In this document: positions 5,819 to 47,923 of the stretch, in pieces
Position numbering within the stretch: the stretch's first letter is position 1
How the letters are laid out: every line of letters starts with the position of its first letter
Assembly (NCBI GenBank): GCA_019096195.1
Contig: JAGTXK010000048.1
Location: forward strand, 1 to 58,570
From: Boletus sp. NGJ
Taxonomy: Eukaryota; Basidiomycota; Agaricomycetes; Boletales; Boletaceae
Direction of reading: 5' to 3'
Length of the DNA stretch: 58,570 nt
Notes under the pieces: model-generated
What the model saw: the letters and a program-made list of their open reading frames with translations, nothing else
Databases searched by the model: none
What the model was told of the DNA's origin: nothing
Position numbers and translations under genes: made by a program

Positions 5819-6757
5819 TGTTATGCCGGGTAACAATGTGACATGTTCCCGAATAATCAACCCTGTTTGATTATTGAACTAGCAGGACTTGAGGGGAAAA
5901 TATCTCCCAAGGCCCAATGGTTCCTCAAACTGGGGACCAACTGCTAGCTTTATATAGAGTGTTCTGTGTTGCCTCTACGACCAATGGCAGAGTCTTGGAT
6001 TTACCTCAGTGGTGCAATCCTCCAAGAAGGAAGGGCAGACTGGATGCAGATGCCAGCAACCAAGTGTCCTGGGCTTACATGGCCTAGTGTCAGTGGCGGA
6101 GTCCTGGGCTTATATGGTTGCCAGTGGCAGAGTCCCAGGCTTGCACTGACCAACCTCTGTTGGGAGTTGGAGTTGCCAAAGCTTTAGAAGTGGGTTCGGA
6201 TGGCAACAAGGTCACACAAGTGTGAAGTGATGAGGAAGATGATCACAAGCACAAGGGTGATCACCTCCAGAGTGGAAGCAAGCTTCTGAGGTGAAGTGGA
6301 ACTGGTAGTGGGAGCAGCTGGTAGATTACATGGAAAGAAGTGTAGATCTAGATTAGAGTTACATGGAGGGCCAGTGTCCCTATAAATAGATCCTGCCCAT
6401 CTAGGGCAGGCTTCATATTGTATATGGTAATCGTAAGTCACAGAAAGAAGATTACCATAATGGATCAAGGCATCAGTCAAATGGTAGGTTGGAATACTAG
6501 GCTGTGTGCAAGAGAGCACAGCCAAGGAGGCAATGTCTATGATTAGATCAAAAGAGGTGAAATGCATGTATCAATGAAATAGGAAGGTGGTGTTCAAATC
6601 AAACAGGTAACTTCCTAGAAAGGGAGTTCTGGCTGGGGCAATGCCTGAGTTGGTGTCGTGGAGGAATCCCTGGTCCAAGTCGAAAAATAAGTCATCCTAT
6701 AGCCCTACAGGGGGTAAAGGAAGGGGAAAAAATATACTCCCTTCTGTGACCATAACA
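5819..6757 (-). repeat. 3' LTR of element B
   Basis: 939 bp, TGTTATG...CATAACA. It closely matches the solo LTR at 1334-2270 and less closely the roughly 1.02-1.06 kb LTRs of C and D, so it defines a second LTR subfamily. The core-promoter-like CTATTTATAG lies where C and D have CTATAAATAG. The outer U3 end is followed on the element side by the polypurine tract. Confidence 0.92.
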
Positions 6758-6770
6758 TTACCCTCCTCAT
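6758..6770 (-). promoter_or_regulatory. polypurine tract of element B
   Basis: In the sense strand it reads ATGAGGAGGGTAA and directly abuts the LTR start TGTTATG. The same tract precedes the 3' LTR in C and D, with a close variant in E. It would prime plus-strand DNA synthesis during reverse transcription. Confidence 0.85.
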
Positions 6771-6787
6771 AGTCTTGAAGTTCCATT

Positions 6788-7933
6788 TCAAGAACTTCTG
6801 TCCCCCTCATTCTCCTCGTAACCAGTAAGGTCCCAGGAGTCATCAAGGACTCCCTGGCTAGGACAGGTCTGGTAACCATGTCCTCTTCCGCCACAGTAGG
6901 TGCAAGCTCTTTGTGGGCAAGCATACTGTGGATGGTTGGGGGCAACCACCCGACAGTAGGGGCACTGGTAGTAGGGGCAGGCAGGCCGAAGGTGACCTTG
7001 ATGTCCACATTTGAAACAGTGGAGGCCAGAGATGGGAGCTTGATGGTGATTAGCCGGTCAGGTGCCAGACAAGGAATGGGGATGACTAGCCATTAAGTCA
7101 GAATAGCTGGTAGGAGAGGCACCTGTGGCAGCCCCAGGAATGGGAATGGAGGAAGGAGGAGGGCTCCTCATTGTAGTGTCTCCCAGTGTGTAGAGAAGAT
7201 CTCGGTTGTTGGGGCGAGAGGGGAGGCTGGCTAAGAATACCATGGCTCCTCGCCGATGGAGGGTCCTGGTCTGATGGGAAAGGGCTGGGGAAGGAACTGG
7301 GAGGACTGGTATTGCAGGGGTTCCTCAGGAGAAGGGGTTGGAGGAAGTGGAGGAAGGGGAGGTGACAATGGTGTCATCAGAGGACTGGGCCCTCTGTGTC
7401 TCTGGAGGGTTTCTATCAACTCCGTTAACGCCTCTAATTCTGTTGATGTTCTCTAGGGGTTGCTCCACAACAGAAGGAACTGGGTAGGAGGGTGTGGTGG
7501 TCAATGAGGGGGCAAAGAAAAGGTGATTTTTCTCTTCCGAGAGGGAGAGGAGGGTGGCATGGAGGAGGCAATCATGGGTGTTGATGGGCAGAAGGGCAAG
7601 GGAATAGTTGAATCCCTCAATGAAAAGGAGGTGGAGAATAAGTTTGCGAATCTCAACGATGCTTTCCGTTGCCCTTTCTTCTTCAGTGGTCTGCTGGGTG
7701 TTGAAGACATGGGAACTTGTTGAGCTCCCAGCAGTCCCGGTGAGAATGGATTGAAGTGAGGAGTAGGATCTGTAAAGAGCGACAAGTTGGACGAGTGAGT
7801 CATCACAAGAGAAGAAGGGGATGGATTGGAGGATTTGGATTGTGACAGGATCATCGAGGACGGTTGCATAGAGATTTCAGTGATGGGTGGGGGAGAGTCA
7901 GTTGAGGCGTACAGAGAGAAGGGCGATGGCCAT
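6788..7933 (-). pseudogene. post-pol ORF3 with three C-terminal zinc knuckles (element B copy)
   Basis: The minus-strand frame starts at ATG 7933, directly after the UAG of the small upstream ORF, and ends at TGA 6788-6790: 382 codons, 15 nt shorter than in C and D, so indels kept the frame. The N-terminal part is globular-looking (LVQLVALYRSYSS, FNYSLALLPINTHD). The middle is Pro/Ser-rich. The C-terminus has three zinc knuckles: CFKCGHQGHLRPAC, CPYCRVVAPNHPQYAC and CTYCGGRGHGYQTC. Several in-frame stops are present, mostly where C or D has CGA. Zinc knuckles suggest nucleic-acid binding, perhaps a nucleocapsid or chaperone role. I know of no named family for the whole protein. Confidence 0.75.
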
Positions 7934-8101
7934 CTACCAATTATGGTGGTAGGGGCAATAGTCAATGTGGCAGAAGCAGGAATGTGAGCCGGCGTATTTA
8001 GAAATGTCGAGGTCTGGGTATTGTCTCTGAAGATGGGCTTGGGTGAGGGCAGCTGATACATGGGCGAGTAGTATAAACAGGGAGGTATTGTCCTGGGACA
8101 T
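7934..8101 (-). CDS. small post-pol ORF3a, Cys/His-cluster peptide (element B copy)
   Basis: The frame has 55 codons plus UAG, uninterrupted in this copy, starting MSQDNTSLFILLAHVSAALT and ending with CFCHIDYCPYHHNW. The cluster C-x-C-x4-C-x2-H-H could bind zinc. It begins just after the pol stop and its UAG is followed immediately by AUG of ORF3. A further in-frame ATG lies two codons upstream. The same ORF, same length, is found in D, in C (start changed to ATA) and in E (stop changed to TAA plus TAG). Role unknown. Confidence 0.65.
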   Translation of the reverse strand: MSQDNTSLFILLAHVSAALTQAHLQRQYPDLDISKYAGSHSCFCHIDYCPYHHNW

Positions 8102-8110
8102 GAGCATGTC

Positions 8111-8601
8111 TCAAAGTTTGAGTCGCCTGTTATACTCCAAGAGTATTTTCTTGGTGTTTCCTAGGTTGGCCTCTGGTTCCCAAGTTCGTTCTGCTGCGGA
8201 GTATCCCTTCCAGTGGGTTATGTATTGCCTTCTTCCTGGTTTTCCCCAATGGTTTATGATGCTGTTCACTTTGTATTCCTCTTCTGTTCCAATGAGTTCT
8301 GAGGGTGGTTGAGTGAAATTGGGACCATGTTTCATAGTTTCCCGATACAGGGAGAGTAGGGATGCATGGAACACATCATGGATCTTCCACTGTTTTGGCA
8401 ACTTGAGTCAGAATGCCATAGAGGATACCACTTGAGTAATTTCAAATGGCCCAGTGTGTTTCAGAGACAGCTTTCATGATGGGACTTGGAGTTTCAGGTT
8501 CTTGGCATCCAGCCATACCTTATCTCCGAGTTTTCAGGGTTTGAAGCGAGAGTGGACTCTCTCCTTCATGCGTAGTTGTGCCAGTTTATGTGCTGCTTCT
8601 G
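8111..8601 (-). pseudogene. pol fragment of B: integrase C-terminus and chromodomain
   Basis: The minus-strand frame carries the end of integrase (MKERVHSRFKP, then the GPY/F region GPFEITQVVSSMAF), the hinge LKLPKQWKIHDVFHASLLS, and a chromodomain with RRQYITHWKGYSAAERTWEP. The aromatic and acidic positions typical of chromovirus chromodomains are present (Tyr, Trp-Lys-Gly-Tyr, Thr-Trp-Glu-Pro). In-frame TGA/TAG codons replace residues seen in D or C. The fragment is cut at 8601 by the 1203-bp solo LTR and resumes at 9810 after the repeated TTCTG. Confidence 0.9.
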
Positions 8602-10200: not shown

Positions 10201-11218
10201 TGTTACGGTTACCGAAGGGGGTACATCTTTTCCCCTTCCCTCTCCCCCCGTAGGCCTATGGGACAACCTCTTTTTCGACTCTGACCAGGGATTCCCCCGC
10301 AACCCCAACTCAGGCATCGCCCCATTCGGAACTACCTTTCTAGGAAGTTACTCATAACTCTCTTTTTAGGAACCTACCCATTTGGTATGGACACCACCTT
10401 CCTATTTCATTGATACATGCTTTCTTCCTTCTTGACCCAATCATTGACATTGCCTCCTTGGCTGTGTTCTCTCGCACACAGCCCAATATTCCTACCTTCC
10501 TATTTCGACTCATGCCTTAATCCACTTATAGTAATCTCTTGTCTGCGACTAGATATTACTATACTTGTCACGAAGCCTGCCCTAGAGGGGTAAGGCCTAT
10601 AAATAGGGATGCGGGCCCTTCATATAACCTCAACCTAGATCTACACTTCTTCCCGTGTAATCTAAAGCTCGCTTCTCCCACTTAAAGGTTCCACTTCACC
10701 TCAGAAGCCTTCTCCCGTGATCTGGAGGTGCTCGCCCTCGTGCTCGTGATCATCTTACTCATCACTTCGCACTTGTGTGCCATCGCTGTTGTCGCCAGCT
10801 TCTAAAGCTTCAGCAACACAAACAACCAACAGAGGTTGGCTGTTGTCAGTCAGGACTCTACCACTTACTAGACGGGATAAAGCCCGAGACTCCGCCATCG
10901 GCATCGAAGACTCCACCATTCAATTATAGGCCCAGTAAGCCTTAGGAATCAGCAGACGGAAGGCTACTGCTCCTAGGCCTGCACACCGGTCTGCCCCCTC
11001 CTTTGTGTAAGGATTGGGATTCCGTGGTAAATCCGAGACTCCGCCATCGGTCGTAGAGGTAACGAGAGGACTCTACGTAAAGCTAGCAGTGGTCCCCAGT
11101 CAGAGGGTATTTGGGCCTCTGGAGGTTAAGTGATCTCTTCCTCAAGCCTGCTAGTCCGGTAATCCAACAGGTGTTGGGATTATACAGGAACGTGTCACCA
11201 TTGTTACAAGGCGTAACA
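10201..11218 (+). repeat. 5' LTR of element C
   Basis: TGTTACGGTTACC...GGCGTAACA, 1018 bp, direct repeat of 17634-18653. A TATAAATA box lies at 10598-10605. The open frame over the first about 157 bases is the U3 copy of the end of the overlapping frame described at 16507-17790. An earlier B-element pol sequence abuts it on the left. Confidence 0.95.
10598..10605 (+). promoter_or_regulatory. TATA box of the C 5' LTR
   Basis: TATAAATA, followed by GGG, about 400 bases into the 1018-bp LTR. The same box is at 18031-18038 in the 3' LTR and on the minus strand of D LTRs. Position is consistent with an LTR core promoter; the start of transcription was not determined. Confidence 0.6.
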
Positions 11219-11677
11219 AAAGATCTAAGTTATAAATTGTCAAAGACTATCAAGTCTAGCAACTCCCATCTCAATTAACGGAATTGAAACTGCCTATCAG
11301 AGGATAGGCCCTTGCTCTACGCACTGCACAGAATCAACCTTTCCCATCTCCTAGGAGAAGATCGAGAAGAAGAAGCTACACCATCACGGGCTTCTACTCC
11401 TATCTCCGATATGTCTTCATCAAGAAGGATCCCCGGGTCATCGTCCCATTACAACGACCCTCCCTCCCATACATTTCCAGATCAGCCCAGACGAACAGAT
11501 TTTCTAGGTGGTCTCTGCTCTCACACCGTGACCCCATCGGACGCTCCTATTCCACTACCAGCGTTCCAACCGGTCCCCATCTGAGTAGACTCACCCGACC
11601 CACTGTTCCCAAGCGGAAGATCTAGTCCCAACCTAGGAAATCCCCGGCCCAAAGAAGACACAGACGACAATGACGAT
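11219..11677 (+). other. leader of element C and possible Gag N-terminal extension
   Basis: Directly after the LTR the sequence AAAGATCTAAGTTATAAATT (11219-11238) occupies the primer-binding position. It does not begin with the TGG expected for a tRNA 3' end. From 11288 the gag frame is open upstream of the first shared ATG, with a Ser/Pro-rich reading (SSSRRIPGSSSHYNDPP, LPAFQPVPI), except for one TGA at 11582-11584. D has CAA at that place, so an ancestral CGA is possible. No ATG in this extension is shared with D, so I do not include it in the gag call. Confidence 0.5.
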
Positions 11678-12712
11678 ATGGTTGAAATCAAAGCTGCCCT
11701 GCCTGAGGAGTTCTCAGAGGAGACACATGATGCCAAGAGATGGCTCATGGCGATGGAAGGATATTTCCATCTAGGAGGCACAGAGAAGTTCACTGAGGAA
11801 GCCAAGAGGCTCATCCTGCTGAACTGGATGTCCAAGGGAAGAGGAAAAGTGTTTGCAGAAGCCTGGTTGACCAGGCTACTCGATGACACCGTGCCACTCA
11901 CAGACAAATCCTATAATGAAATCAAGAAAGCCTTCGCCCTCACCTTCACCCCCCATAACACCAGCAACCTAGCAATGGCAGATCTCGGGTCCCTCCGACA
12001 AAACACCAAGGACCCAAAGGGATTCGATAAATTCATATCCCAGTTTTCATTGCTAGTGGTCCGCTCGGAACTACAAGAATTCCATTCCATCCTCAAATTC
12101 TTCCTTAGGGGAATCGACCCAAGAATTGCCCGACAAATGATTAACAGCGAGATCTTCCAAAATGCCAAGAAAATGGAAGAAGTCTATGAAGTTGCTGCTA
12201 ACATCCACGGGGCATGGCAAAGAATCGAAGGAATACAGAAAGGACCCTTCGTGTCCTTTGAAAGAGGGCAAGGAAACCACCACAATCCGAACACGATGGA
12301 CATGGATAGGATAACGTTATCTCCACTCGAACGGGCCAAGTGGATGAGAGAGCAAAGATGCTTCATCTGCAACAAAACTGGGTGCAGTACCAGGAACCAC
12401 CCAGGATACTGGCCGGCTAGGAGAGAAGAATATAGGAAACCACAGAAAACGCACACTAGGATGGTCATCACGCAAGAAACACCACAGGATGCCCTGGACA
12501 AGTATTTCACAGAAGTCGCCAGAAATAACAGACAAGACACAGTTCTCAGAATGCTGCAAACAGTCTATGACATGGGACTGGATGAGCGAGGACTCGTTTT
12601 GGAACAAGTACACGAAGCTGCCGCACAGGAATGGGAAGAGAACATCAATTCTCTTGCCCTAGGACCTGCTACACAAGTTCCCCCTTCTCCCACAGATCAA
12701 ATGTCTTTTTAG
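11678..12712 (+). CDS. gag of element C
   Basis: The 344-residue open frame begins MVEIKAALPEEFSEETHDAK. It has a capsid-like helical region (residues about 10-180: DAKRWLMAMEGYFHLGG, KRLILLNWMSKGRGKVF, FALTFTPHNTSNLAMADLGS). A basic linker and one zinc knuckle near residue 225 follow, with C-x2-C-x4-C-x4-H ([14 protein letters not shown]) rather than the usual C-C-H-C order. The ATG chosen is the first one shared with D, giving the same 1035-bp length in both. The frame is intact here. The end overlaps the start of pol by about 80 bases in a different frame. The product would form the virus-like particle and bind element RNA. Confidence 0.88.
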   Translation: MVEIKAALPEEFSEETHDAKRWLMAMEGYFHLGGTEKFTEEAKRLILLNWMSKGRGKVFAEAWLTRLLDDTVPLTDKSYNEIKKAFALTFTPHNTSNLAMADLGSLRQNTKDPKGFDKFISQFSLLVVRSELQEFHSILKFFLRGIDPRIARQMINSEIFQNAKKMEEVYEVAANIHGAWQRIEGIQKGPFVSFERGQGNHHNPNTMDMDRITLSPLERAKWMREQRCFICNKTGCSTRNHPGYWPARREEYRKPQKTHTRMVITQETPQDALDKYFTEVARNNRQDTVLRMLQTVYDMGLDERGLVLEQVHEAAAQEWEENINSLALGPATQVPPSPTDQMSF

Positions 12713-15700: not shown

Positions 15701-16265
15701 TCCCCCTATCAGAAAAATGTTCCTACCTGCCTTGGAAGAAAGGCTCATTTTCCTGGAAGAAGCAAGAAAGGAAGCAGAAGCTGCGCACCAACTGGCATAG
15801 CTACAAATGAAGGAGAGAGTTCACTCTCGCTTCAAGCCCTGGAAACTCGGAGATAAGGTTTGGCTGGATGCCAAAAACCTAAAACTCCAAGTCACATCTC
15901 GAAAACTCTCCCCTAAACGAACAGGACCATTTGAAATCACTCAAGTAGTGTCCTCCATGGCATTCCGACTCAAGTTGCCGAAACAGTGGAAGATCCACAA
16001 CATGTTCCACGCATCCCTACTTTCCCCGTATCAGGAAACCACGGAACATGGTCCCAATTTCACTCAACCACCACCGGAACTTGTCAGAACAAACGAGGAG
16101 TACGAAGTGGACAGCATCATCAACCATCAGGGGAAACTGGGAAGAAGGCAGTACCTGACACACTGGAAAGGATACTCTGCAGCAGAACGAACTTGGGAAC
16201 CGGAAGCCAATCTTGGAAATGCCAAGAAGATTCTCTTGGAATATAAAAAGCGGCTCAGACTGTGA
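12631..16265 (+). pseudogene. pol of element C (PR-RT-RNaseH-IN-chromodomain), inactivated
   Basis: The frame lies one base back from gag (or two forward) and overlaps it. Domains in order are: aspartic protease with ALIDSGATGCFIS near residue 75; reverse transcriptase from PLNPLEQQACQEFI; RNase H with LMTDASLTASGVVLM; integrase with an HHCC finger (ending CAICQSNK) and DDE residues in VDLITDLP, SDRGPQF and HPQTDGETE; GPY/F; and chromodomain QYLTHWKGYSAAERTWEP near the end. Lesions are TGA at 13669-13671, TGA at 14646-14648, TGA at 15534-15536, TAG at 15798-15800, and a 13-bp deletion near 13956 that removes the YMDD motif and shifts the frame. Three of the stops replace CGA seen in D. With the deletion added back, its length equals D pol exactly (3648 bp). 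Confidence 0.93.
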
Positions 16266-16274
16266 GACCGTCTC

Positions 16275-16442
16275 ATACCCCAAGATAATACCTCCCTCCT
16301 CATTCTAATCGCCCGAGTATCCGCTGCTCTCACCCAAGCCCGCCTTCAGAAACAGTACCCAGATCTAGACATCCCAAAACACATTCGACAACACGAGTGT
16401 TTTTGCAAGATCAACTACTGCCCCTATCACCATAACTGGTAG
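16275..16442 (+). pseudogene. small post-pol ORF3a (element C copy), start codon lost
   Basis: 56 codons including the UAG stop, homologous to the B and D copies, with ALTQARLQKQYPDLDIPK in the middle and CFCKINYCPYHHNW at the end. The initiator position reads ATA where B, D and E have ATG. UAG at 16440-16442 is directly followed by the AUG of ORF3. The Cys/His cluster may bind zinc; function unknown. Confidence 0.6.
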
Positions 16443-17603
16443 ATGACTCTCGCCCCCCTCTCCGTACACCTCAACTGACTCTCCCCTATCCACCGATGGA
16501 ACCTCTATGCCGCTATCCTCGATGACCCCATTGCAGTTCAGACCTTACAGACCATCTTCTTCTTCTCCTGCGACGACTCACTCGTCCAACTCGTTGCCCT
16601 CTACTAATCTTACTCCACACTTCAATCCTTTCTCTCCCGGACCTATGGGAGCTTGGCAGGTCCCCATGACTCCAATGCCCAAAAGACCGCCGAAGAAGAA
16701 AGGCCAACGGAAGGGATCCTCGAGATTTGCGAACTTATTCTCGACCTCCTTTTCATCGAAGGGTTCAACTACTCCCTCGCCCTTCTACCCATCAACACCC
16801 ATGATCACCTCCTCCACCCCACCATCCTCTCCCTCTCGGAAGAGGAAAGTTGAATTTTCTTTGCCCCCTCGACAACTACCTTGTTCCCCCACCCCGTTCC
16901 CCCAAGACGAAACCCTTCCGTGGCGGAGCGACCCATGGAGAACCTCAATGGAGTCCGAAGCATTAACAGAGTTGATAGAAACTCTCCAGAGACACGGAGA
17001 GCCCAGTGCTCCAATGACACCATTGTTGCCTCCCCCTCCTCCATGAGTCCCAACCCCTCCTCCCAAGGAACCTCCTCAGTACCAATCCTCCCAGTTCCTC
17101 CCCCAGCCGTTTCCTGACCCACCAGAACCCTCCACCGACGAGGAGCAATGGTATTCTCAGTCGGCCTCCCCTCTTGCCCCAACGGCTGAGGTCTTCTCAA
17201 CACACTGGGGGACTCTACAACGAGAAGCCCTACTCCTTCCGCCATTCCCATTCCTGGGGCCACCACAGGCACCTCTCCTACCAGCCATTCCAACTCAATG
17301 GTTGGTAATCCCAATCCCCTGTCCAGCGCCAGATCGCCTCATTACCATCGAACTCCCCTCACCAGCATCCACTGCTACGAATGCGGACGTCAAGGTCACC
17401 TTCGGCCAGCCTGCCCCCAGTACCAATGCCCCTACTGTAGGGTGGTTGCCCCCAACCATCCACAGTATGCTTGCCCACAAAGAACTTGCACGTACTGTGG
17501 AGGACGAGGACATGGCTACCAGACGTGCCCTAGTCAGGGAGTCTTTGACGACTCCTGGGACCTTACCAACTACGAGGAGAATGAGGGAGATAGGAGTTCT
17601 TGA
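16443..17603 (+). pseudogene. post-pol ORF3 with three zinc knuckles (element C copy)
   Basis: 387 codons including the stop, identical in length to D. The N-terminal region (residues 1-140) carries NLYAAILDDPIAV and DSLVQLVALY-like segments and a helical block GFNYSLALLPINTHDHLLHP. A Pro/Ser-rich middle follows, then CYECGRQGHLRPAC, CPYCRVVAPNHPQYAC and CTYCGGRGHGYQTC, and an acidic tail. Stops in this copy include TGA where D has CGA (codon 12, and a stop near 17190). One TGA near 17115 is shared with D, but B has CAT at that place. The zinc knuckles argue for RNA or DNA binding. I recognise no enzyme motif, no signal peptide and no membrane segment, so it is not envelope-like. Confidence 0.75.
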
Positions 17604-17790
17604 GATGAAACTTCAAGACTATGAGGAGGGTAATGTTACGGTTACCGAAGGGGGTACATCTTTTCCCCTTCCCTCTCCCCCCATAGGCCTATGGGACAAC
17701 CTCTTTTTCGACTCTGACCAGGTATTCCCCCGCAACCTCAACTCGGGCATCGCCCCATTCGGAACTACCTTTCTAGGAAGTTACTCATAA
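16507..17790 (+). other. overlapping frame X across ORF3 and into the 3' LTR (candidate dual coding)
   Basis: A second plus-strand frame starts at ATG 16507 and stays open for 428 codons except for one TGA at 17044-17046, where D has CAA. It is Ser/Pro-rich (DPF SPGP-like block, KKKGQRKGSSRFANLFSTSF, then long proline runs, then MESEALTELIETLQRHGEP) and near its end reads EMKLQDYEEGNVTVTEGGTS across the polypurine tract. It stops 157 bases inside U3 with TTFLGSYS. D has the identical length. Whether it is translated is unknown. It could be a by-product of C-rich sequence, so I list it as a candidate only. Confidence 0.45.
17621..17633 (+). promoter_or_regulatory. polypurine tract of element C
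   Basis: ATGAGGAGGGTAA immediately before the 3' LTR start TGTTACG. Same position and nearly the same sequence in B, D and E. Confidence 0.88.
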
Positions 17791-18653
17791 CTCCCTTTTT
17801 AGGAACCTACCCATTTGGTATGGACACCACCTTCCTATTTCATTTATACATGCTTTCTTCCTTCTTGACCCGATCATTGACATTGCCTCCTTGGCTGTGT
17901 TCTCTCGCACACAGCCCAATATTCCTACCTTCCTATTTTGACTCATGCCTTGATCCACTTATAGTAATTTCTTGTCTGCGACTAGATATTACTATACTCG
18001 TCACGAAGCCTGCCCTAGAGGGGTAAGGCCTATAAATAGGGACGTGGGCCCTCCATGTAACCTTAACCTAGATCTACACTCCTTCCCGTGTAATCTACCA
18101 AGCCAGCTTCTCCCGCTTAAAGGTTCCACTTCACCTCAGAAGCCTTCTCCCGTGATCTGGAGGTGCTCGCCCTCGTGCTCGTGATCATCTTACTCATCAC
18201 TTCGCACTTGTGTGCCATCGCTGTTGTCGCCAGCTTCTAAAGCTTCAGCAACACAAACAACCAACAGAGGTTGGCTGTTGTCAGTCAGGACTCTGCCACT
18301 CACTAGACGGGATAAAGCCCGAGACTCCGCCATCGGCATTGAAGACTCCGCCATTCGATTATAGGCCCAGTAAGCCCTAGGAATCAGCTGATGGAAGGCA
18401 ACTGCTCCTAGGCCTGCACACCGGTCTGCCCCCTCCTTTGTGTAAGGATTGGGATTCCGTGGTAAATCTGAGACTCCGCCATCGGTCATAGAGGTAACAA
18501 GAGGACTCTACGTAAAGCTAGCAGTGGTCCCCAGTCAGAGGGTATTTGGGCCTCTGGAGGTTAAGTGATCTCTTCCTCAAGCCTGCTAGTCTGGTAATCC
18601 AACAGGTGTTGGGATTATACGGGAACGTGTCACCATTGTTACAAGGTGTAACA
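17634..18653 (+). repeat. 3' LTR of element C
   Basis: 1020 bp, TGTTACGGTTACC...GGTGTAACA, with TATAAATA at 18031-18038. It differs from the 5' LTR by scattered substitutions, many of them C/T or G/A. It is followed by AAAAC and then the interrupted B integrase. Confidence 0.95.
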
Positions 18654-18658
18654 AAAAC

Positions 18659-19493: not shown

Positions 19494-20540
19494 TGTTACG
19501 CCTTGTAACAATGGTGACACATTCCCGTATAATCCCAACACCTGTTGGATTACCAGACTAGCAGGCTTGAGGAAGAGATCACTTAACCTCCAGAGGCCCA
19601 AATACCCTCTGACTGGGGACCACTGCTAGCTTTAACATAGAGTCCTCTCGTTACCTCTACGACCGATGGCAGAGTCTCGGATTTACCACGGAATCTCAGC
19701 ACCTTCTCGTGGAGGTGGGAGTAGACCGGTGCGCAGGCCTAGGAAGAGTAGCCTTCCGTCTGCTGGTTCCTAGGACTTACTGGGCCTATAATCGAATGGC
19801 GGAGTCTTCGATGCTGATGGTGGAGTCTCAGGCTTCGTGAGTGCCGGTGGCGGAGTCCCAGTCTTGCTGGGTCAGTGGCGGAGTCCTGACCGATGACGAC
19901 CAACCTCTGTTGGTCGTTGGAGTTGCCAAAGCTTTAGAAGTGGGGGACGGCAACGACGGCGCACAAGTGTGAAGTGATGAGTAAGATGATCACGAGCACG
20001 AGGGCGAGCACCTCCAGATCATGGGAGAAGGCTTCTGAGGTGAAGTGGAACCTTTAAGCGGGAGAAGCTGGCTTGGTAGATTACACGGGAAGGAGTGTAG
20101 ATCTAGGTTAAGGTTACATGGAGGGCCCACGTCCCTATTTATAGGCCTTACCCCTCTAGGGCAGGCTTCGTGACGAGTATAGTAATATCTAGTCGCAGAC
20201 AAGAAATTACTATAAGTGGATCAAGGCATGAGTCAAAATAGGAAGGTAGGAATATTGGGCTGTGTGCGAGAGAACACAGCCAAGGAGGCAATGTCAATGA
20301 TCGGGTCAAGAAGGAAGAAAGCATGTATCAATGAAATAGGAAGGTGGTGTCCATACCAAATGGGTAGGTTCCTAAAAAGGGAGTTATGAGTAACTTCCTA
20401 GAAAGGTAGTTCCGAATGGGGCGATGCCCGAGTTGAGGTTGCGGGGGAATCCCTGGTCAGAGTCGAAAAAGAGGTTGTCCCATAGGCCTATGGGGGGAGA
20501 GGGAAGGGGAAAAGATGTACCCCCTTCGGTAACCGTAACA
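19494..20540 (-). repeat. 3' LTR of element D
   Basis: 1047 bp, starting TGTTACGCCTTG on the plus strand and ending ACCGTAACA. The minus strand carries a TATAAATAGGG box around + 20135-20142. The inner edge abuts the polypurine tract (20541-20553). Confidence 0.94.
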
Positions 20541-21667
20541 TTACCCTCCTCATAGTCTTGAAGTTTCATCTCAAGAACTCCTATCTCCCTCATTCTCCTC
20601 ATAGTTGGTAAGGTCCCAGGAGTCATCAAAGACTCCCTGGCTAGGATAGGTCTGGTATCCATGTCCGTGTCCTCCACAGTATGTGCAAGTTCTTTGTGGG
20701 CAAGCATACTGTGGATGGTTGGGGGCAACCACCCTACAGTAGGGGCATCGGTACTGGGGGCAGGCTGGCCGAAGGTGACCTTGACGTCCGCATTCGTAGC
20801 AGCAGATGCCGGTGAGAGGAGCTCGATGGTTATGAGGCAATCCGGCGCTGGGCAAGGGATTGGGATTACTAGCCATTGGGTCGGAATGGCTGGTAGGAGA
20901 GGTGCCTGCGGCGGCCCCAGGAATGGGAATGGCGGAAGGAGTAGGGCTTCTCGTTGTAGAGTCCCCCAGTGTGTGGAAAAGACCTCGGTTGTTGGGGTGA
21001 GAGGGAAGGCTGACCGAGAACACCATGGCTCCTCGTCGGCAGAGGGTTCTGGTGGGTCAGGAAATGGCTGGGGGAGGAACTGCGAGGATTGGTACTGGGG
21101 TGGTTCCTTGAGAGGAGGGGTTGGGACTTGTGGAGGAGGGGGAGGCAACAATGGTGTCGTTGGAGGACTGGGCTCTCTGTGTTTCTGGAGAGTTTCTATC
21201 AACTCCATTAGTGCTTCTGACTCCATTGAGGTTCTTCATGGGTCACTCCGCCACGGAAGGGTTTCGTCTCGGGGGAATGGGGTAGGAGGGCATGGCGGTT
21301 GTAGAGGGGGCAAAGAAAATGCAACTTTCTTCTTCCGAGAGGGAGAGGATGGTGGGGTGGAGGAGGCGATCATGGGTGTTGATGGGTAAAAGGGCGAGGG
21401 AGTAGTTGAACCCCTCGATGAAAAGGAGGTCGAGAACAAGTTCGCGAATCTCGAGGATTCCTTCCGTTGGCCTTTCTTCTTCGACCGTCTGTTGGGCATT
21501 GGAGTCATGGGGACTTGCCGAGTTCCCATAGGTCCTGGAGAGAAGGGATCGAAGTGAGGAGTAGGATCTATAGAGGGCGACGAGCTGGACAAGAGAGTCA
21601 TCGCAGGAGAAGAAGGGGATGGTCTGAAGGATCCGAACTGCAATGGGGTCGTCAAGGATGGCGGCAT
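20384..21667 (-). other. overlapping frame X, element D copy
   Basis: 428 codons from ATG 21667 to a stop inside U3 of the 3' LTR, the same length as in C. One in-frame TGA occurs at 21236-21238, where C has TGG. The uninterrupted 280-residue end part starts MESEALMELIETLQKHREP, is proline-rich, and passes through the polypurine tract (LQDYEEGNVTVTEGG) to TTFLGSYS. It overlaps the zinc-knuckle frame over most of its length. Translation is unproven. Confidence 0.45.
20541..20553 (-). promoter_or_regulatory. polypurine tract of element D
   Basis: Sense-strand ATGAGGAGGGTAA directly next to the LTR start. Needed for plus-strand priming. Confidence 0.88.
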
Positions 21668-21731
21668 AGAGATTTCGGCGGTGATTGGGGGAAAGTCGGT
21701 TGAGGCGTACGGAAAGGGGAGCAAGAGTCAT
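20571..21731 (-). pseudogene. post-pol ORF3 with three zinc knuckles (element D copy)
   Basis: 387 codons including the stop. ATG 21731 follows UAG 21734-21732 directly. This copy has the longest unbroken N-terminal part (162 residues: RLNRLSPNHRRNLYAAILDD, FFSCDDSLVQLVALYRSYSS, FNYSLALLPINTHDRLLHPT). Two stops interrupt the middle; one is TGA where C has CGA, the other is shared with C but open in B. The C-terminal 151 residues carry CYECGRQGHLRPAC, CPYCRVVAPNHPQYAC and CTYCGGHGHGYQTY; the last knuckle has lost its final Cys here. Likely nucleic-acid binding by its knuckles, otherwise unknown. Confidence 0.75.
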
Positions 21732-21899
21732 CTACCAGGTGTGATGGTAGGGGCAGTAATCGATCTTGCAGAAACACCAGTGTTGTTCGATATGTTTGGG
21801 GATATCTAGATCCGGGTATTGTTTCTGAAGGTGGGCTTGGGTGAGAGCAGCGGATACTTGGGCAAGTAGAATGAGGAGGGAGGCGTTGTCTTGGATCAT
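21732..21899 (-). CDS. small post-pol ORF3a (element D copy)
   Basis: 55 residues, intact: MIQDNASLLILLAQVSAALT, then a linker with KQYPDLDIPKHIEQH, ending CFCKIDYCPYHHTW and UAG. It starts 10 bases after the pol stop. The Cys/His pattern C-x-C-x4-C-x2-H-H is preserved in B, C and D. Its stop and the ORF3 start are adjacent, which suggests coupled termination-reinitiation or stop readthrough. Confidence 0.68.
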   Translation of the reverse strand: MIQDNASLLILLAQVSAALTQAHLQKQYPDLDIPKHIEQHWCFCKIDYCPYHHTW

Positions 21900-21908
21900 G
21901 GGTTCGTT

Positions 21909-25556: not shown

Positions 25557-26509
25557 TCCTGTGCGGCAGTTTCGTGTACTCGTTCCAAAACGAGTCCTCA
25601 CTCGTCCAGTCCCGTGTCATAGACTGTTTGTAGCGTTCTAAGAACGGTGTCTCGTCCGTTCTGCTTGGCGACTTCTGTGAGATACTTGTCAAGGGGATCT
25701 TGTGGTGTTTCTTGCGTGACGACCACCCTGGTGTGCATTTCCTGTGGTTTCCTATATTCTTCTCTCCTAGCCAGTCAGTATCCTGGGTGGTTCCTGGTAC
25801 TGCACCCAGTTCTGTTGCAGATGAAGCATCTTTGCTCTCTCATCCGCTTGGCCTGTTCAATAGGAGATAACGTGATCCTGTCCACGTCCATTGCGTTTGG
25901 ATCGTGGTGATTTCCTCGGCCTCTTCCAAAGGATGCAAAGGGTCCTTTCTGTATTCCTTCAATTTATTGCCATGCCCCGTGGATGTTAGCAGCTACTTCG
26001 TAGACTTCTTCCATTTTTTTGGCTTTTTGGAAGGTCTTGCTGTTAACCATTTGTCGGGCAATGCACGGGTCAATTCCCCTAAGGAAGAATTCAAGGATGG
26101 AACGGAATTCTTGTAGTTCCGAGCAAACCACTAGCAGTGAGAACTGGAAGATGAATTTATCAAATCCCTTTGGGTCCTTGGTGTTTTGTCGGAGGGACCC
26201 TAGGTCTGCCATTGCCAGGTTGCTGGTGTTATGGGGGGTGAAGGTGAGGGCGAAGGCTTTCTTGATTTCATTATAGGATTTGTCTGCGAGTGGCACGGTG
26301 TCGTCGAGTAGCCTGGTCAACCAGGCTTCTGCAAACGCTTTTCCTCTTCCCTTGGACATCCGGTTCAGCAGGATGAGCCTCTTGGCTTCCTTGGTGAACT
26401 TCTCTGCGCCTCCTAGATGGAAATATCCTTCCATTGCCATGAGCCATCTCTTGGCATCATGTGTCTCCCCTGAGAACTCCTCAGGCAGGGCAGCTTTGAT
26501 TTCAACCAT
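25475..26509 (-). pseudogene. gag of element D, with premature stops
   Basis: 1035 bp, the same length as C gag, starting MVEIKAALPEEFSGETHDAK. The first 181 residues are open. TAA follows at 25964-25966 where C has AGA, then further stops occur (TGG to TGA just after the zinc knuckle, and CGA to TGA near the end). The zinc knuckle [14 protein letters not shown] keeps the C-x2-C-x4-C-x4-H pattern. It overlaps pol in another frame. Confidence 0.9.
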
Positions 26510-45200: not shown

Positions 45201-45717
45201 CTCATTTCTAGAAGAAGCAAGGCAAGAAGCCAAAGCTACCCATAAACTCACACAAGTAAAAATGAAAGAGAGGATCCACTCTCGCTTCAAACCATGGAAC
45301 TCAGATAAAGTGTGGCTAGGCACCAAAAATCTTAAACTCCAGGTCCCATCTAGGAAGCTGTCTCTGAAATGCAGTGGACCATTTGAAATTGTTCAAGTGG
45401 TTTCCTCTATAGCATTCTGACTCAAGTTGCCAAAACAGTGGAAGATTCACGATGTGTTCCATGCCTTCCTGCTTTCTCCATATCAGAAAATAACAGAACA
45501 TGGCCCCAATTTCACTCAACCATCACCAGAACTTATCAGAACAGAAGAGGAATACAAAGTGAACAGCATCATTAATCATTGGGAAAAACCAGGACGAAAG
45601 CAGTATCTTACACACTGAAAATAGTACTTCACAGTAGAATGGACTTGGGATTCAGAATCAAATTTAGGAAACACCAAAGCCATGCTTTCAGAGTATAAAA
45701 GACAACTGAAACTCTAA
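42300..45717 (+). pseudogene. pol of element E, heavily decayed
   Basis: The protease reads ALINSSATGCFIS, so the catalytic Asp-Ser-Gly has become Asn-Ser-Ser. RT pieces lie at 43048-43530, with a deletion of roughly 90 bases around the active site (the text jumps from the Leu-Val-Ile-Tyr-Met before the Asp pair to EKCTF). RNase H (LMMDASLTASEGVLMQ) is at 43711-44022 and the integrase finger region at 44500-44650. The core at 44719-45420 has VFNHSSQF in place of the SDRGPQF-type Asp block, and the first Asp block is deleted. The chromodomain remnant at 45580-45700 has a stop in the aromatic cage region. Confidence 0.88.
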
Positions 45718-45728
45718 GATGCACCCCC

Positions 45729-45893
45729 ATGCCCCAAGACAACATGTCTCTCTTAATACTCTTGGCCTCTGTCTCTACTGCTCTCACACAAGCCCACCTT
45801 CAAGTACAATACTCCAACCTTGACACCCCGAAACATATTTCCCAACATTCCTGTTTCTGCAGGATTAATTACTACCTATACCACACCCACTAA
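45729..45893 (+). pseudogene. small post-pol ORF3a (element E copy)
   Basis: MPQDNMSLLILLASVSTALT, then AHLQVQYSNLD, and a degraded Cys/His end (CFCRINYYLYHTH), so the third Cys is lost. It ends TAA then TAG then ATG, keeping the stop-start adjacency. It begins 11 bases after the pol stop. Confidence 0.6.
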
Positions 45894-45896
45894 TAG

Positions 45897-47008
45897 ATGG
45901 CGATTGCCCCCCTCTCTAAATGTCTAAATCGCCTCTCCCCCATCCACTGCTGTAACCTTTATGCATTCATACTTAACAACCACATCACACTTCAGGTGCT
46001 CCAATGCATTCCATTCTTCACCTGTGATAACTTTCTTGTTCAGCTTGTTACTCTCTACAGATCCTACTTCACCCTTTGATCCCTTTTCTCCAGGACCCCT
46101 GGGAGCTCAGCAAGTTCCCTCAATGCCCAGCAGACTGCCAAAGAAGAAAGGGTGATGGAAAACATCATCAAAATTCATGAACTTGTTCTCAACCTCCTCT
46201 TCATTTTTCATCGAAGAATTCAACTATTTCCTCACCCTTCTATCCATCAACACCCATGATTGCATGCTCTACACCACCCTCATCTCCCTCTTGGAAGAAG
46301 AGAGTAACCTTTTCTTTGCCTCCTCATTAACTGCCACAACTTAGCACTCCATTCCCCATTGACAAGACTCTTCTGTTGCAGAGCAGCCCCTGGAGAACAT
46401 TAGTGGAATCCCAAGCACTAATGGAGTTGATAGAAGCCCTTCAGGAACATGGAGAGCTGGATCCTCCAGTGACACCATTGTTGCCTCTTTCCTCCATGAC
46501 CTCTAATCCCACAGTACCACTCCTTGCAATACCTCCCCAGCCCTTTTCAACCAACCTAGAACTCTCTGCCAGCAAGGGGCCATGGTATTCTCAGCCAATC
46601 TCCCCTCTCACCTCAACACCCAAGGTATTCTCCACTTATTGGGGAACCTTACAATGAGGAGCCTTTCTCCTTCCTCCATTCCCATTCCTGGGCCTGCCAT
46701 AGATACCTCTTATATCAACTATTCCAGCTCAATGGCTAGTAATCCCCATCCCATGCCTGCTCCTGCTCAGTACATCACCATCAAACTCCCATCACTAGCC
46801 TTCCCTGCTTCAAATGTGGATATCAAGGTCACCTTCAGCCACTCTGCCCCCACTACTAATGTCCCTACTGTCAGGTGGTTGCCCCCAACCATCCACAGTA
46901 TGCTTGCCCAAGAAAGACATGTACCTACTGTGGAGAGTGAGGACACGGCTACCAGCTCTTGACAACTCATGGGACCTCACAGATTATGGAATCAACAAGA
47001 GGGATTGA
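45897..47008 (+). pseudogene. post-pol ORF3 (element E copy)
   Basis: The first 60 residues are open and align without gaps to the D copy (LNRLSPIHCCNLYAFILNN against LNRLSPNHRRNLYAAILDD, and FFTCDNFLVQLVTLYRSYFT). Afterwards frameshifts and stops appear. The zinc-knuckle region is visible near 46810-46940 (GCPQPS... in one frame, CPYC-like and NHPQYACPRKTCTYC in the other) and the tail DNSWDLTDYGINKRD precedes the stop at 47006-47008. Confidence 0.65.
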
Positions 47009-47034
47009 AGTTCTTGAGATGGAACTTCAAGACT

Positions 47035-47047
47035 ACAAGGAGGGTAA
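47035..47047 (+). promoter_or_regulatory. polypurine tract of element E
   Basis: AAGGAGGGTAA next to TGTTATG of the 3' LTR, matching the tracts of B, C and D. Confidence 0.8.
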
Positions 47048-47923
47048 TGTTATGGTTGTAGAAGGGGGTACACCTTTTTCCCTACCAACACCTCCTCCCA
47101 GGCTCTCAAATGACCTCCTCTTTGACTCTTCTAACACAGAATTCCCCTGGGATTTCTCTGAAACACCCACAAGCATTGCCTTACTAGATCTACTCCCTTT
47201 TCGGTGATGCTATTCCACTCTCATGGCTGTGACACAGCCCTCTATTTCACCTTTTCTATTTCATCTTTTAGATTTAATCTCAGACATTGCCTCCTTGGCT
47301 ATGCTCTCTCACACACAGCCCAGTATTTCCATTCCTCCATTTGTTTAATGTTCTGAAGTTCTCTTTAAGATAATACTAGATCATTGATCTCATATTACCT
47401 TATATGATAAGAAACCTGTTCTAGATAGAACAGGACTATTTATACAGACATTTGCCCTTCATATATTTCCCTAAACTTGATCTACACTCATCATCAACTT
47501 CTGTTCCTAAGAAGTTAATCCTGGAAGCATTGCTTCTCCTCATGTTTATGATTAGTGTAATCACTAACTTCTGCCTTTGCTTCATGACACATTAGGTCAA
47601 GGCGAAGCTGTCCTCCCTGTTATTGGACCAGGATTATAAAAGGTGTCTGTTCTCTACCAGAGTAGAGCAAATAGTAGAAACCTTGCAGAGCATACATCGT
47701 GGATGGTTGCTGATCTGAGATATATTAGGAGCTGGGACATCTTTGTTGCTCACATATCTAGTGTTAGGTGGTTATCCTAACACAGTTAAAGTCTCGCTAC
47801 AGTACCCACCGGCCAACCGGACCCTTGCCTATTCAGAGGAAGGGAGAGTAGCAGGTCCTAGTGAAACCCAGATCACTTTAGATTCACTCAGGTTGTGTGT
47901 TCCATTATTATGAGAGCATAACA
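47048..47923 (+). repeat. 3' LTR of element E
   Basis: 876 bp, TGTTATGGTTG...GAGCATAACA. The beginning and several inner blocks (GGCTGTGACACAGCCC-type and CATTGCCTCCTTGGCT) align with the C LTR. The shorter length reflects deletions. The next bases are GCACA; their partner is lost with the 5' end. Confidence 0.8.

What the first reader, a model, noticed from the sequence alone, without database searches (positions are those of the whole stretch)
16266..17633. A post-pol accessory module (Cys/His micro-ORF plus zinc-knuckle ORF3) conserved in four copies of one gypsy family
B, C, D and E all carry the same 1.3-kb module between the chromodomain stop and the polypurine tract: a 55-codon ORF with a C-x-C-x4-C-x2-H-H end, then an ORF of 382-387 codons whose end holds three zinc knuckles. 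B differs from C and D by 15 nt, a multiple of three. The module has no signal peptide or membrane segment, so it is not an envelope gene. A second nucleic-acid-binding protein 3' of pol is unusual for a Ty3/gypsy chromovirus. I do not know of a described family for it.
Basis: partly seen in the sequence, partly recalled or inferred. Interest (0 to 1): 0.85.

Follow-up and report, generated by a model that had tools for sequence, protein, structure and literature searches.

The report
Overlapping extra genes in a retrotransposon

Summary
Behind the chromodomain stop lie, in the pol frame, ORF3a (Cys/His micro-ORF) and ORF3 (helical domain, linker, three zinc knuckles). All four window copies have ORF3 broken by stops; it is open in seven identical copies elsewhere. 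The +1 frame over ORF3 is also a gene (ORF4, Pro-rich; 49 of 53 copies keep its ATG). Codon-wise tests on 53 copies show pol-frame selection in ORF3a, the ORF3 start and the knuckles; +1-frame selection over ORF3's linker, 17051-17370 (nominal P 1.5e-6); and, at 16601-17050, selection in both frames when all changes are counted (transversions alone favour the +1 frame). Sister families (pol end about 54% identical) hold a one-frame ORF3 homologue; 17 metagenome proteins are relatives, two carrying pol's SH3-like end. Three metagenome proteins resemble ORF4. No Pfam family passed its cut-off, no known fold matched. Most likely ORF3 is an accessory nucleic-acid-binding protein made by stop-restart translation, later overprinted by ORF4. 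Function is inferred, not shown. New variant of a known kind (post-pol additional ORFs).

The parts
10202..11221 (+). 5' LTR of the copy that holds the stated module
   Evidence: 96.4% identical to 17635-18657
15807..16265 (+). end of pol: integrase C-terminal SH3-like domain and chromodomain; stop TGA 16263-16265
   Evidence: ORF; Pfam SH3_Tf2-1 1.2e-19 and Chromo 3.4e-14 on the equivalent piece L005:3-458; TGA in 44 and TAA in 5 of 53 copies
16266..16442 (+). ORF3a, same frame as pol, ends C-x-C-x4-C-x2-H-H-x-W, stop TAG 16440-16442; its ATG reads ATA in this copy
   Evidence: transversion classes SN 12/4.3 against NS 2/8.1; TAG in 51 of 53 copies
16443..17603 (+). ORF3 (pol frame): ATG directly behind the TAG of ORF3a, stop TGA 17601-17603; broken by five stops in this copy (16476, 16605, 16851, 17115, 17187)
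   Evidence: ATG in 50 and TGA in 53 of 53 copies; stops; open in L005-L011
16443..16870 (+). predicted all-helical domain of ORF3
   Evidence: AlphaFold2 on the copy at 21243-21731 (-): best model pLDDT 72.5, the other four 44.6-54.3
16871..17372 (+). linker of ORF3; its 17051-17370 part is selected in the +1 frame
   Evidence: SN 1/16.0, NS 22/15.0 for 17051-17370
17373..17414 (+). zinc knuckle 1, C-x2-C-x4-H-x4-C
   Evidence: sequence; 46 of 53 copies
17427..17474 (+). zinc knuckle 2, variant spacing C-x2-C-x6-H-x4-C
   Evidence: sequence; 44 of 53 copies
17487..17528 (+). zinc knuckle 3, C-x2-C-x4-H-x4-C; lost by a frame change in the seven identical recent copies
   Evidence: sequence; 39 of 53 copies; L005 protein
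16507..17790 (+). ORF4, +1 frame over ORF3: ATG 16507, runs past the end of ORF3 into the 3' LTR, stop TAA 17788-17790; one stop in this copy (17044)
   Evidence: ATG 16507 in 49 of 53 copies; open in L016, L034, L028, L081. A stop at 17221 in 24 of 53 copies is CGA/CAA to TGA/TAA decay
17051..17370 (+). most constrained part of ORF4 (F-x2-HW-x2-LQ ... LPPFPFL ... TQWLVIPIP)
17635..18657 (+). 3' LTR; ORF4's open frame covers its first 156 bases
   Evidence: selection on this tail not shown
20384..21908 (-). same module in the second copy: ORF3a 21908-21732, ORF3 21731-20571, ORF4 frame 21667-20384
6695..8373 (-). same module with the pol end, third copy, 80% identical, 15 bases shorter, broken in both frames
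45455..47086 (+). same module with the pol end, fourth copy, 72% identical, heavily decayed

Best explanation
This is a post-pol accessory locus of a Ty3 chromovirus family. Supported by sequence and substitution pattern: ORF3a and ORF3 are protein genes in the pol frame; ORF4 is a second protein gene in the +1 frame, overlapping ORF3; about 150 codons (16601-17050) bear selection in both frames, while 17051-17370 (ORF3's linker) is selected as ORF4 and the knuckles as ORF3. Inferred: ORF3 is made by termination and restart of translation (its ATG abuts the ORF3a TAG here and sits in an ATGA string behind pol in sister families), folds into a helical domain that joins subunits, and binds the element's RNA or cDNA through its tandem knuckles, as an accessory nucleocapsid-like chaperone. 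ORF4 arose later by overprinting ORF3's long linker, starts from its own ATG 64 bases inside ORF3 by leaky scanning or restart, and is a Pro-rich protein with a basic cluster that probably regulates or partners the element's RNA or ORF3.
For: Codon-position and class tests on 53 copies with pol as internal control; the transversion counts keep their pattern when the recent group is reduced or removed. Both-frame selection at 16601-17050, all changes: SN over NN P 5e-6, NS over NN P 2.5e-8, nominal. Starts and stops conserved; the third frame has stops in 53 of 53 copies at three sites inside ORF3, while the pol and +1 frames have none in more than 20 of 52 and 24 of 53 inside. Cross-family: ORF4 of L016 matches L038 at 43.7% over 190 residues, 119 bits. 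The ORF4 profile finds 3 metagenome proteins, best E 1.4e-17. Sister ORF3 finds 17, best E 2.6e-73, two with SH3_Tf2-1 in the same chain. The sister ORF3 hits this window's knuckles (53%, E 7.9e-4). Sister ORF3 is selected in its own frame over helical part, linker and knuckles; ATGA string at its start in 27 of 27. Helical domains predicted in both.
Against: No transcript or peptide data. Openness of the +1 frame alone is weak: 212 of 5000 synonymous shuffles of the L005 ORF3 are as open. At 16601-16900 transversions favour the +1 frame (SN 2/12.0, NS 14/13.4); the pol-frame share at 16601-17050 rests on transitions (transversions alone: SN over NN P 0.08) and on protein likeness to L038-L040. 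24 of 53 copies have a +1-frame stop at 17221 inside the ORF4 core; its codons are TGA 22, CGA 20, CAA 9, TAA 2, so I read it as repeated decay, and the +1 signal behind it stands in both groups. The seven identical recent copies lost knuckle 3 and carry local frame swaps. Homology of the two helical domains is not significant by hhalign (probability 0.5%). No fold matched. ORF4 is 19-22% proline, which can give loose matches. Class P values treat sites as independent. RNA binding and restart are untested.
Confidence: 0.7

Rival explanations
1. One spliced or frameshifted protein: the helical part (pol frame), the middle (+1 frame) and the knuckles (pol frame) are joined in one product by introns or programmed frameshifts.
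For: Selection switches from pol frame to +1 frame and back along the stretch; at 16601-16900 transversions alone favour the +1 frame.
Against: At 16601-17050 both frames are selected on the same bases when all changes are counted, and the pol-frame helical piece stays alignable to L038-L040 over 144-163 residues at 31-33%; one product cannot use both. The pol frame is open through the linker in recent copies, and sister families have the same parts in one frame. No transcript was examined.
Confidence: 0.17
2. Only ORF3a and ORF3 are genes; the +1 frame is open by base composition.
For: The stretch is stop-poor: 212 of 5000 synonymous shuffles keep the +1 frame as open.
Against: At 17051-17370 transversions are silent in the +1 frame and replacing in the pol frame 22 times, the reverse once (expected 15.0 and 16.0); 21 to 0 in a stricter subset. 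Proteins like ORF4 exist in metagenomes.
Confidence: 0.05
3. A decaying pseudogene stretch with no function.
For: All four window copies are broken; the median of 53 copies has 4 pol-frame and 2 +1-frame stops at 16443-17600.
Against: Frame-specific constraint on shared, older substitutions; the recent identical copies are open in both frames.
Confidence: 0.02
4. The same two genes, but ORF3 is a second Gag-like capsid rather than a chaperone, and ORF4 an export or transactivating regulator comparable to the Rex/Tax pair.
For: A helical domain plus knuckles resembles Gag architecture; the overlap and 3' position resemble the deltaretrovirus region (PMC3744397, abstract).
Against: Pfam gives no Retrotrans_gag match to ORF3 although it finds one in this element's Gag (2.9e-5); fold searches gave no significant match.
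Confidence: 0.12

Closest known systems
[quoted passage not shown]
   Same: Position between pol and 3' LTR, present in most copies, sense strand
   Different: Knuckle protein, no env-like membrane stretch, and a second gene in an overlapping sense frame; the abstract speaks of sense or antisense aORFs, not of two overlapping sense ones
'add. ORF' of unknown function in a survey of fungal Gypsy elements (PMC2864245; passages, section 5 and Figure 3 legend seen)
   Same: Extra ORF of unknown function in chromodomain elements; may include this ORF3 family
   Different: The figure and additional files were not seen; the text read names no overlap and no selection test
ORF3s of bdelloid rotifer LTR retrotransposons (PMC5408684; abstract and passages seen)
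   Same: Third ORF behind pol, kept in families
   Different: Those named are env-like, GDSL, DEDDy, coiled-coil or membrane types; the word 'overlapping' does not occur in its text
Deltaretrovirus Tax/Rex overlap (PMC3744397; abstract and section list seen)
   Same: Overlapping accessory genes, one predicted to have arisen by overprinting the other
   Different: No sequence relation tested; function here unknown
Retroviral and Ty3 Gag nucleocapsid (recalled architecture)
   Same: C-x2-C-x4-H-x4-C knuckles behind a helical domain
   Different: Separate ORF 3' of pol; knuckle 2 has wider spacing; no Pfam Gag match

Membership tests
Ty3/gypsy chromovirus (Metaviridae) | RT, RNase H and integrase in this order with a C-terminal chromodomain | tested here: met
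   Pfam on the window pol piece 25268-22272: RVT_1 3.1e-28, RT_RNaseH 3.1e-33, Integrase_H2C2 9.1e-17; rve only 0.16 (below cut-off); Chromo 3.4e-14 on the L005 pol end
Ty3/gypsy chromovirus (Metaviridae) | gag with Retrotrans_gag domain, LTRs | tested here: met
   Retrotrans_gag 2.9e-5; LTR pair 96.4%
post-pol additional ORF (aORF) elements | ORF between pol and 3' LTR kept in most copies of a family | tested here: met
   50-53 of 53 aligned copies keep ORF3's start and stop; at least 40 genome places; many copies are decayed inside
zf-CCHC zinc knuckle (PF00098) | score above Pfam's curated cut-off | tested here: not met
   15.8 bits against 20.8 for L005 ORF3, 7.9 for L046
zf-CCHC zinc knuckle (PF00098) | C-x2-C-x4-H-x4-C pattern (recalled; also given in PMC2864245) | tested here: met
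   knuckle 1 in 46 and knuckle 3 in 39 of 53 copies; knuckle 2 has spacing x6
retroviral Gag / capsid | Gag-type domain by profile or fold | tested here: inconclusive
   no Pfam Gag match to ORF3; no significant fold match
envelope (env-like ORF3) | membrane segment | tested here: not met
   best 19-residue hydropathy 1.52 in six natural proteins; no signal-peptide predictor was run
overlapping (overprinted) gene pair | both frames under purifying selection on the same bases | tested here: met
   16601-17050, all changes: SN over NN P 5e-6, NS over NN P 2.5e-8, nominal; transversions alone P 0.08 and 3e-6
overlapping (overprinted) gene pair | both frames translated | not testable with these tools
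   no RNA or peptide data
Tax/Rex-like regulatory pair | transactivation or RNA export activity | not testable with these tools
   laboratory work needed

The most novel reading that the evidence does not exclude
Chromovirus LTR retrotransposons of this clade carry a complex-retrovirus-like accessory locus in which two different proteins are encoded on the same nucleotides, the second overprinted on the linker of a post-pol knuckle protein, and the arrangement is shared by other, still unnamed hosts.
Probability: 0.63. Interest if true: 0.75.

Novelty: new variant of a known kind. Interest (0 to 1): 0.62.

Why it matters
Additional ORFs behind pol are known in LTR retrotransposons, but their functions are mostly open. 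Here many copies of one family, plus sister families with a simpler one-frame state, let the birth of an overprinted gene inside a retrotransposon be followed, with a clear prediction of which stretch belongs to which protein. It also adds a knuckle-protein family to chromoviruses and a candidate stop-restart (ATGA, TAG-ATG) expression signal.

Tried and rejected

Rows dropped: two of the 40 places (C28:1650, C32:500) were not fetched. Of 77 loci or copies with a match 64 distinct ones with enough coverage were kept; of these 53 were used after leaving out messy, short or distant ones named in the script and those of 1700 bases or less. The 53 include six near-identical recent copies, which reduces or removes. 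Of 30 sister loci given, 27 were used. Single-copy or rarer changes (minor count below 3-5, as stated per call) were left out of the tests.

Full report
What was checked. The window is contig C90 of an unnamed 32.8-Mb assembly of 141 contigs. I name copies by window coordinates. The stated module lies in a + strand element with LTRs at 10202-11221 and 17635-18657, 96.4% identical. It recurs at 22174-20474 (-), 8373-6695 (-) and 45455-47086 (+), and in at least 40 places of the genome (40 of 82 candidates scored).

Anatomy. In the frame of pol, behind its TGA (16263-16265), come ORF3a, closed by TAG at 16440-16442, and directly behind it an ATG that opens ORF3, closed by TGA at 17601-17603. Of 53 aligned copies 51 keep the TAG, 50 the ATG and 53 the TGA. 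The three knuckles begin at 17373, 17427 and 17487. In the window all four copies are broken in ORF3 (5, 2, 4 and 6 in-register stops). Elsewhere seven modules (L005-L011), identical over the aligned piece, are open, and pol is open for 1229-1264 codons at all seven places. The flanks of L005 and L007 differ, L008 breaks off before the LTR end, L006 ends with its contig, and those of L009-L011 were not read; so these are, in part at least, separate recent insertions. In these copies ORF3 has local frame swaps and has lost knuckle 3.

The second frame. The +1 frame over ORF3 is also open. Its ATG at 16507 is kept in 49 of 53 copies. The third frame has stops in 53 of 53 copies at 16802, 16964 and 16973; the pol frame has no stop in more than 20 of 52 copies inside ORF3 (17064), the +1 frame none in more than 24 of 53 behind its ATG (17221). 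Both of these are CGA codons turned to TGA or, with CAA, to TAA (17221: TGA 22, CGA 20, CAA 9, TAA 2), which looks like repeated decay; the +1-frame transversion pattern behind 17221 is the same in the 24 copies with the stop (0/1/11 at +1 codon positions 1/2/3) and in the 29 without (1/0/12). The frame is open for 443, 442 and 415 codons in the diverged copies L016, L034 and L028, and lies in a 553-codon open frame in L081. Openness by itself is weak evidence: 212 of 5000 synonymous shuffles of the L005 ORF3 reach it.

Selection. I used sites whose rarer base is shared by several copies, above all transversions, because old copies seem to decay by transitions. At minor count 5 or more the transversions fall on pol-frame codon positions 1/2/3 as 0/2/17 in pol, 2/6/14 in ORF3a, 11/3/8 at 16443-16700, 9/1/5 at 16701-16950, 9/2/2 at 16951-17200, 13/0/0 at 17201-17370, 2/1/6 at 17371-17520 and 1/0/1 at 17521-17603. 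Sorted by effect (first letter pol frame, second +1 frame; S silent, N replacing; transversions, observed/expected): pol SN 15/12.9, NS 0/13.5; ORF3a SN 12/4.3, NS 2/8.1; 16446-16600 SN 10/6.9, NS 3/7.1; 16601-16900 SN 2/12.0, NS 14/13.4; 16901-17050 4/5.8 and 4/5.8; 17051-17370 SN 1/16.0, NS 22/15.0 (P 1.5e-6); 17371-17603 SN 11/7.1, NS 1/8.7 (P 0.0011). A control with the +2 frame shows no such +2 signal inside ORF3 (NS 0-1 in the five stretches from 16446 to 17603). With all changes, 16601-17050 shows selection in both frames (SN over NN 2.7-fold, P 5e-6; NS over NN 3.2-fold, P 2.5e-8); with transversions alone the pol-frame part is weaker (P 0.08) and the +1 part stands (P 3e-6). At 17051-17370 the pol-frame part is not significant (SN over NN P 0.06), at 17371-17603 the +1 part is not (NS over NN P 0.14). 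Reducing or removing the recent group does not change the pattern. These P values are nominal, since sites on one tree are not fully independent.

Relatives in the genome. A search with the pol end scored 150 of 530 candidates and gave families at about 72%, 54-47% and 40% identity; 20 loci were fetched. At about 72% (L038-L044) both frames are recognisable: ORF4 of L016 matches L038 at 43.7% over 190 residues (119 bits), the pol-frame helical piece matches L038-L040 at 31-33% over 144-163 residues. At about 54% there is a one-frame ORF3 homologue, open for 377, 377, 377, 336 and 397 codons in L045-L048 and L050, broken in L049. All 27 aligned sister copies have the string ATGA at its start. 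The TGA of this string is the pol stop in L046-L048, L050 and L053, while L045, L051, L052 and L100 stop earlier. The sister ORF3 is selected in its own frame over helical part, linker and knuckles (P 0.0013, 0.024, 0.00055 by transversions); its start (490-720) is not clear. Its genome search hits this window's knuckles (17364-17483, 53%, E 7.9e-4). In the three loci at about 40% (L055-L057) no ORF of 90 or more codons resembles it and one search lists no match there. By the simplest reading ORF3 is older than ORF4.

Other hosts. The sister ORF3 finds 17 metagenome proteins (E 2.6e-73 to 1.9e-27; 7990 candidates scored), two of them carrying pol's SH3_Tf2-1 end, one also Chromo, in one chain. 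In an alignment of 19 rows the four ligands of knuckle 1 and three of knuckle 2 are invariant, the fourth nearly so. The ORF4 profile finds three (E 1.4e-17, 4.9e-16, 3.1e-5; 7992 scored); two of them share the HW-x2-LQ block, and all three hold an IGVLEMELQ block near the end. Their DNA was not at hand, so the overlap in those hosts was not tested.

Domains and folds. Pfam finds no family above cut-off in ORF3a, ORF3 or ORF4. AlphaFold2 predicts a helical domain in sister ORF3 (residues 101-200, ten-residue blocks 73-94; whole model mean 55.4) and in this family's ORF3 (best model mean 72.5, the other four below 55), with a similar order of helices, two long ones in the middle. No fold match was significant. 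ORF4 is 19-22% proline, with a KKKGQ(R/W)K cluster.

Mechanism. Supported: two protein genes on one stretch. Inferred: ORF3 by termination and restart; RNA/cDNA binding through knuckles; ORF4 from its own ATG; ORF4 regulates or partners ORF3 or the RNA. A single spliced or frameshifted protein is the main rival, disfavoured by the doubly selected stretch and the one-frame sister state.

Known kinds. Post-pol additional ORFs are known in plants (PMC7264820, abstract) and marked in fungal elements as 'add. ORF' of unknown function (PMC2864245, section 5 and figure legend; figure not held). Rotifer ORF3s differ in kind (PMC5408684, abstract and passages). The overprinted pair may work like, but is not shown to be a member of, the Tax/Rex kind (PMC3744397, abstract). 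I rate it a new variant of a known kind.

Noticed in passing
window 12359-12400 (+) and 25775-25963 (-): Gag's cysteine motif reads C-x2-C-x4-C-x4-H, the usual knuckle spacing with the third and fourth ligands swapped.
   Followed up: no
window 12701-12712 (+): gag ends ATG TCT TTT TAG and pol continues in the -1 frame across C-TTT-TTA-G, which looks like a -1 frameshift site.
   Followed up: no
L046:490-720 and equivalents in 27 sister copies: Behind the pol stop of sister families the pol frame stays stop-free in 14 of 27 copies and reads very hydrophobic (best 19-residue hydropathy above 2 in 24 of 27); a weak codon signal (P 0.07) hints at a further overlapping frame over ORF3's Ser/Pro-rich start.
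   Followed up: partly
L005-L011: Seven identical modules have compensating small frame swaps in ORF3 and end it in the +1 frame, without knuckle 3.
   Followed up: partly
L055-L057 (about 40% family): Pol has a C-terminal extension behind the chromodomain with a C-x-C-x2-C motif (CNCPTC or CDCPTC), loosely like the end of ORF3a.
   Followed up: no
L052:326-562 (-): A piece resembling this family's module end and LTR start lies downstream of a sister-family copy, perhaps a nested remnant.
   Followed up: no
window 17064 and 17221 and the same codons in other copies: Recurrent stops sit at CGA codons (CGA, TGA, CAA, TAA all present), suggesting C-to-T decay of repeats on both strands.
   Followed up: partly
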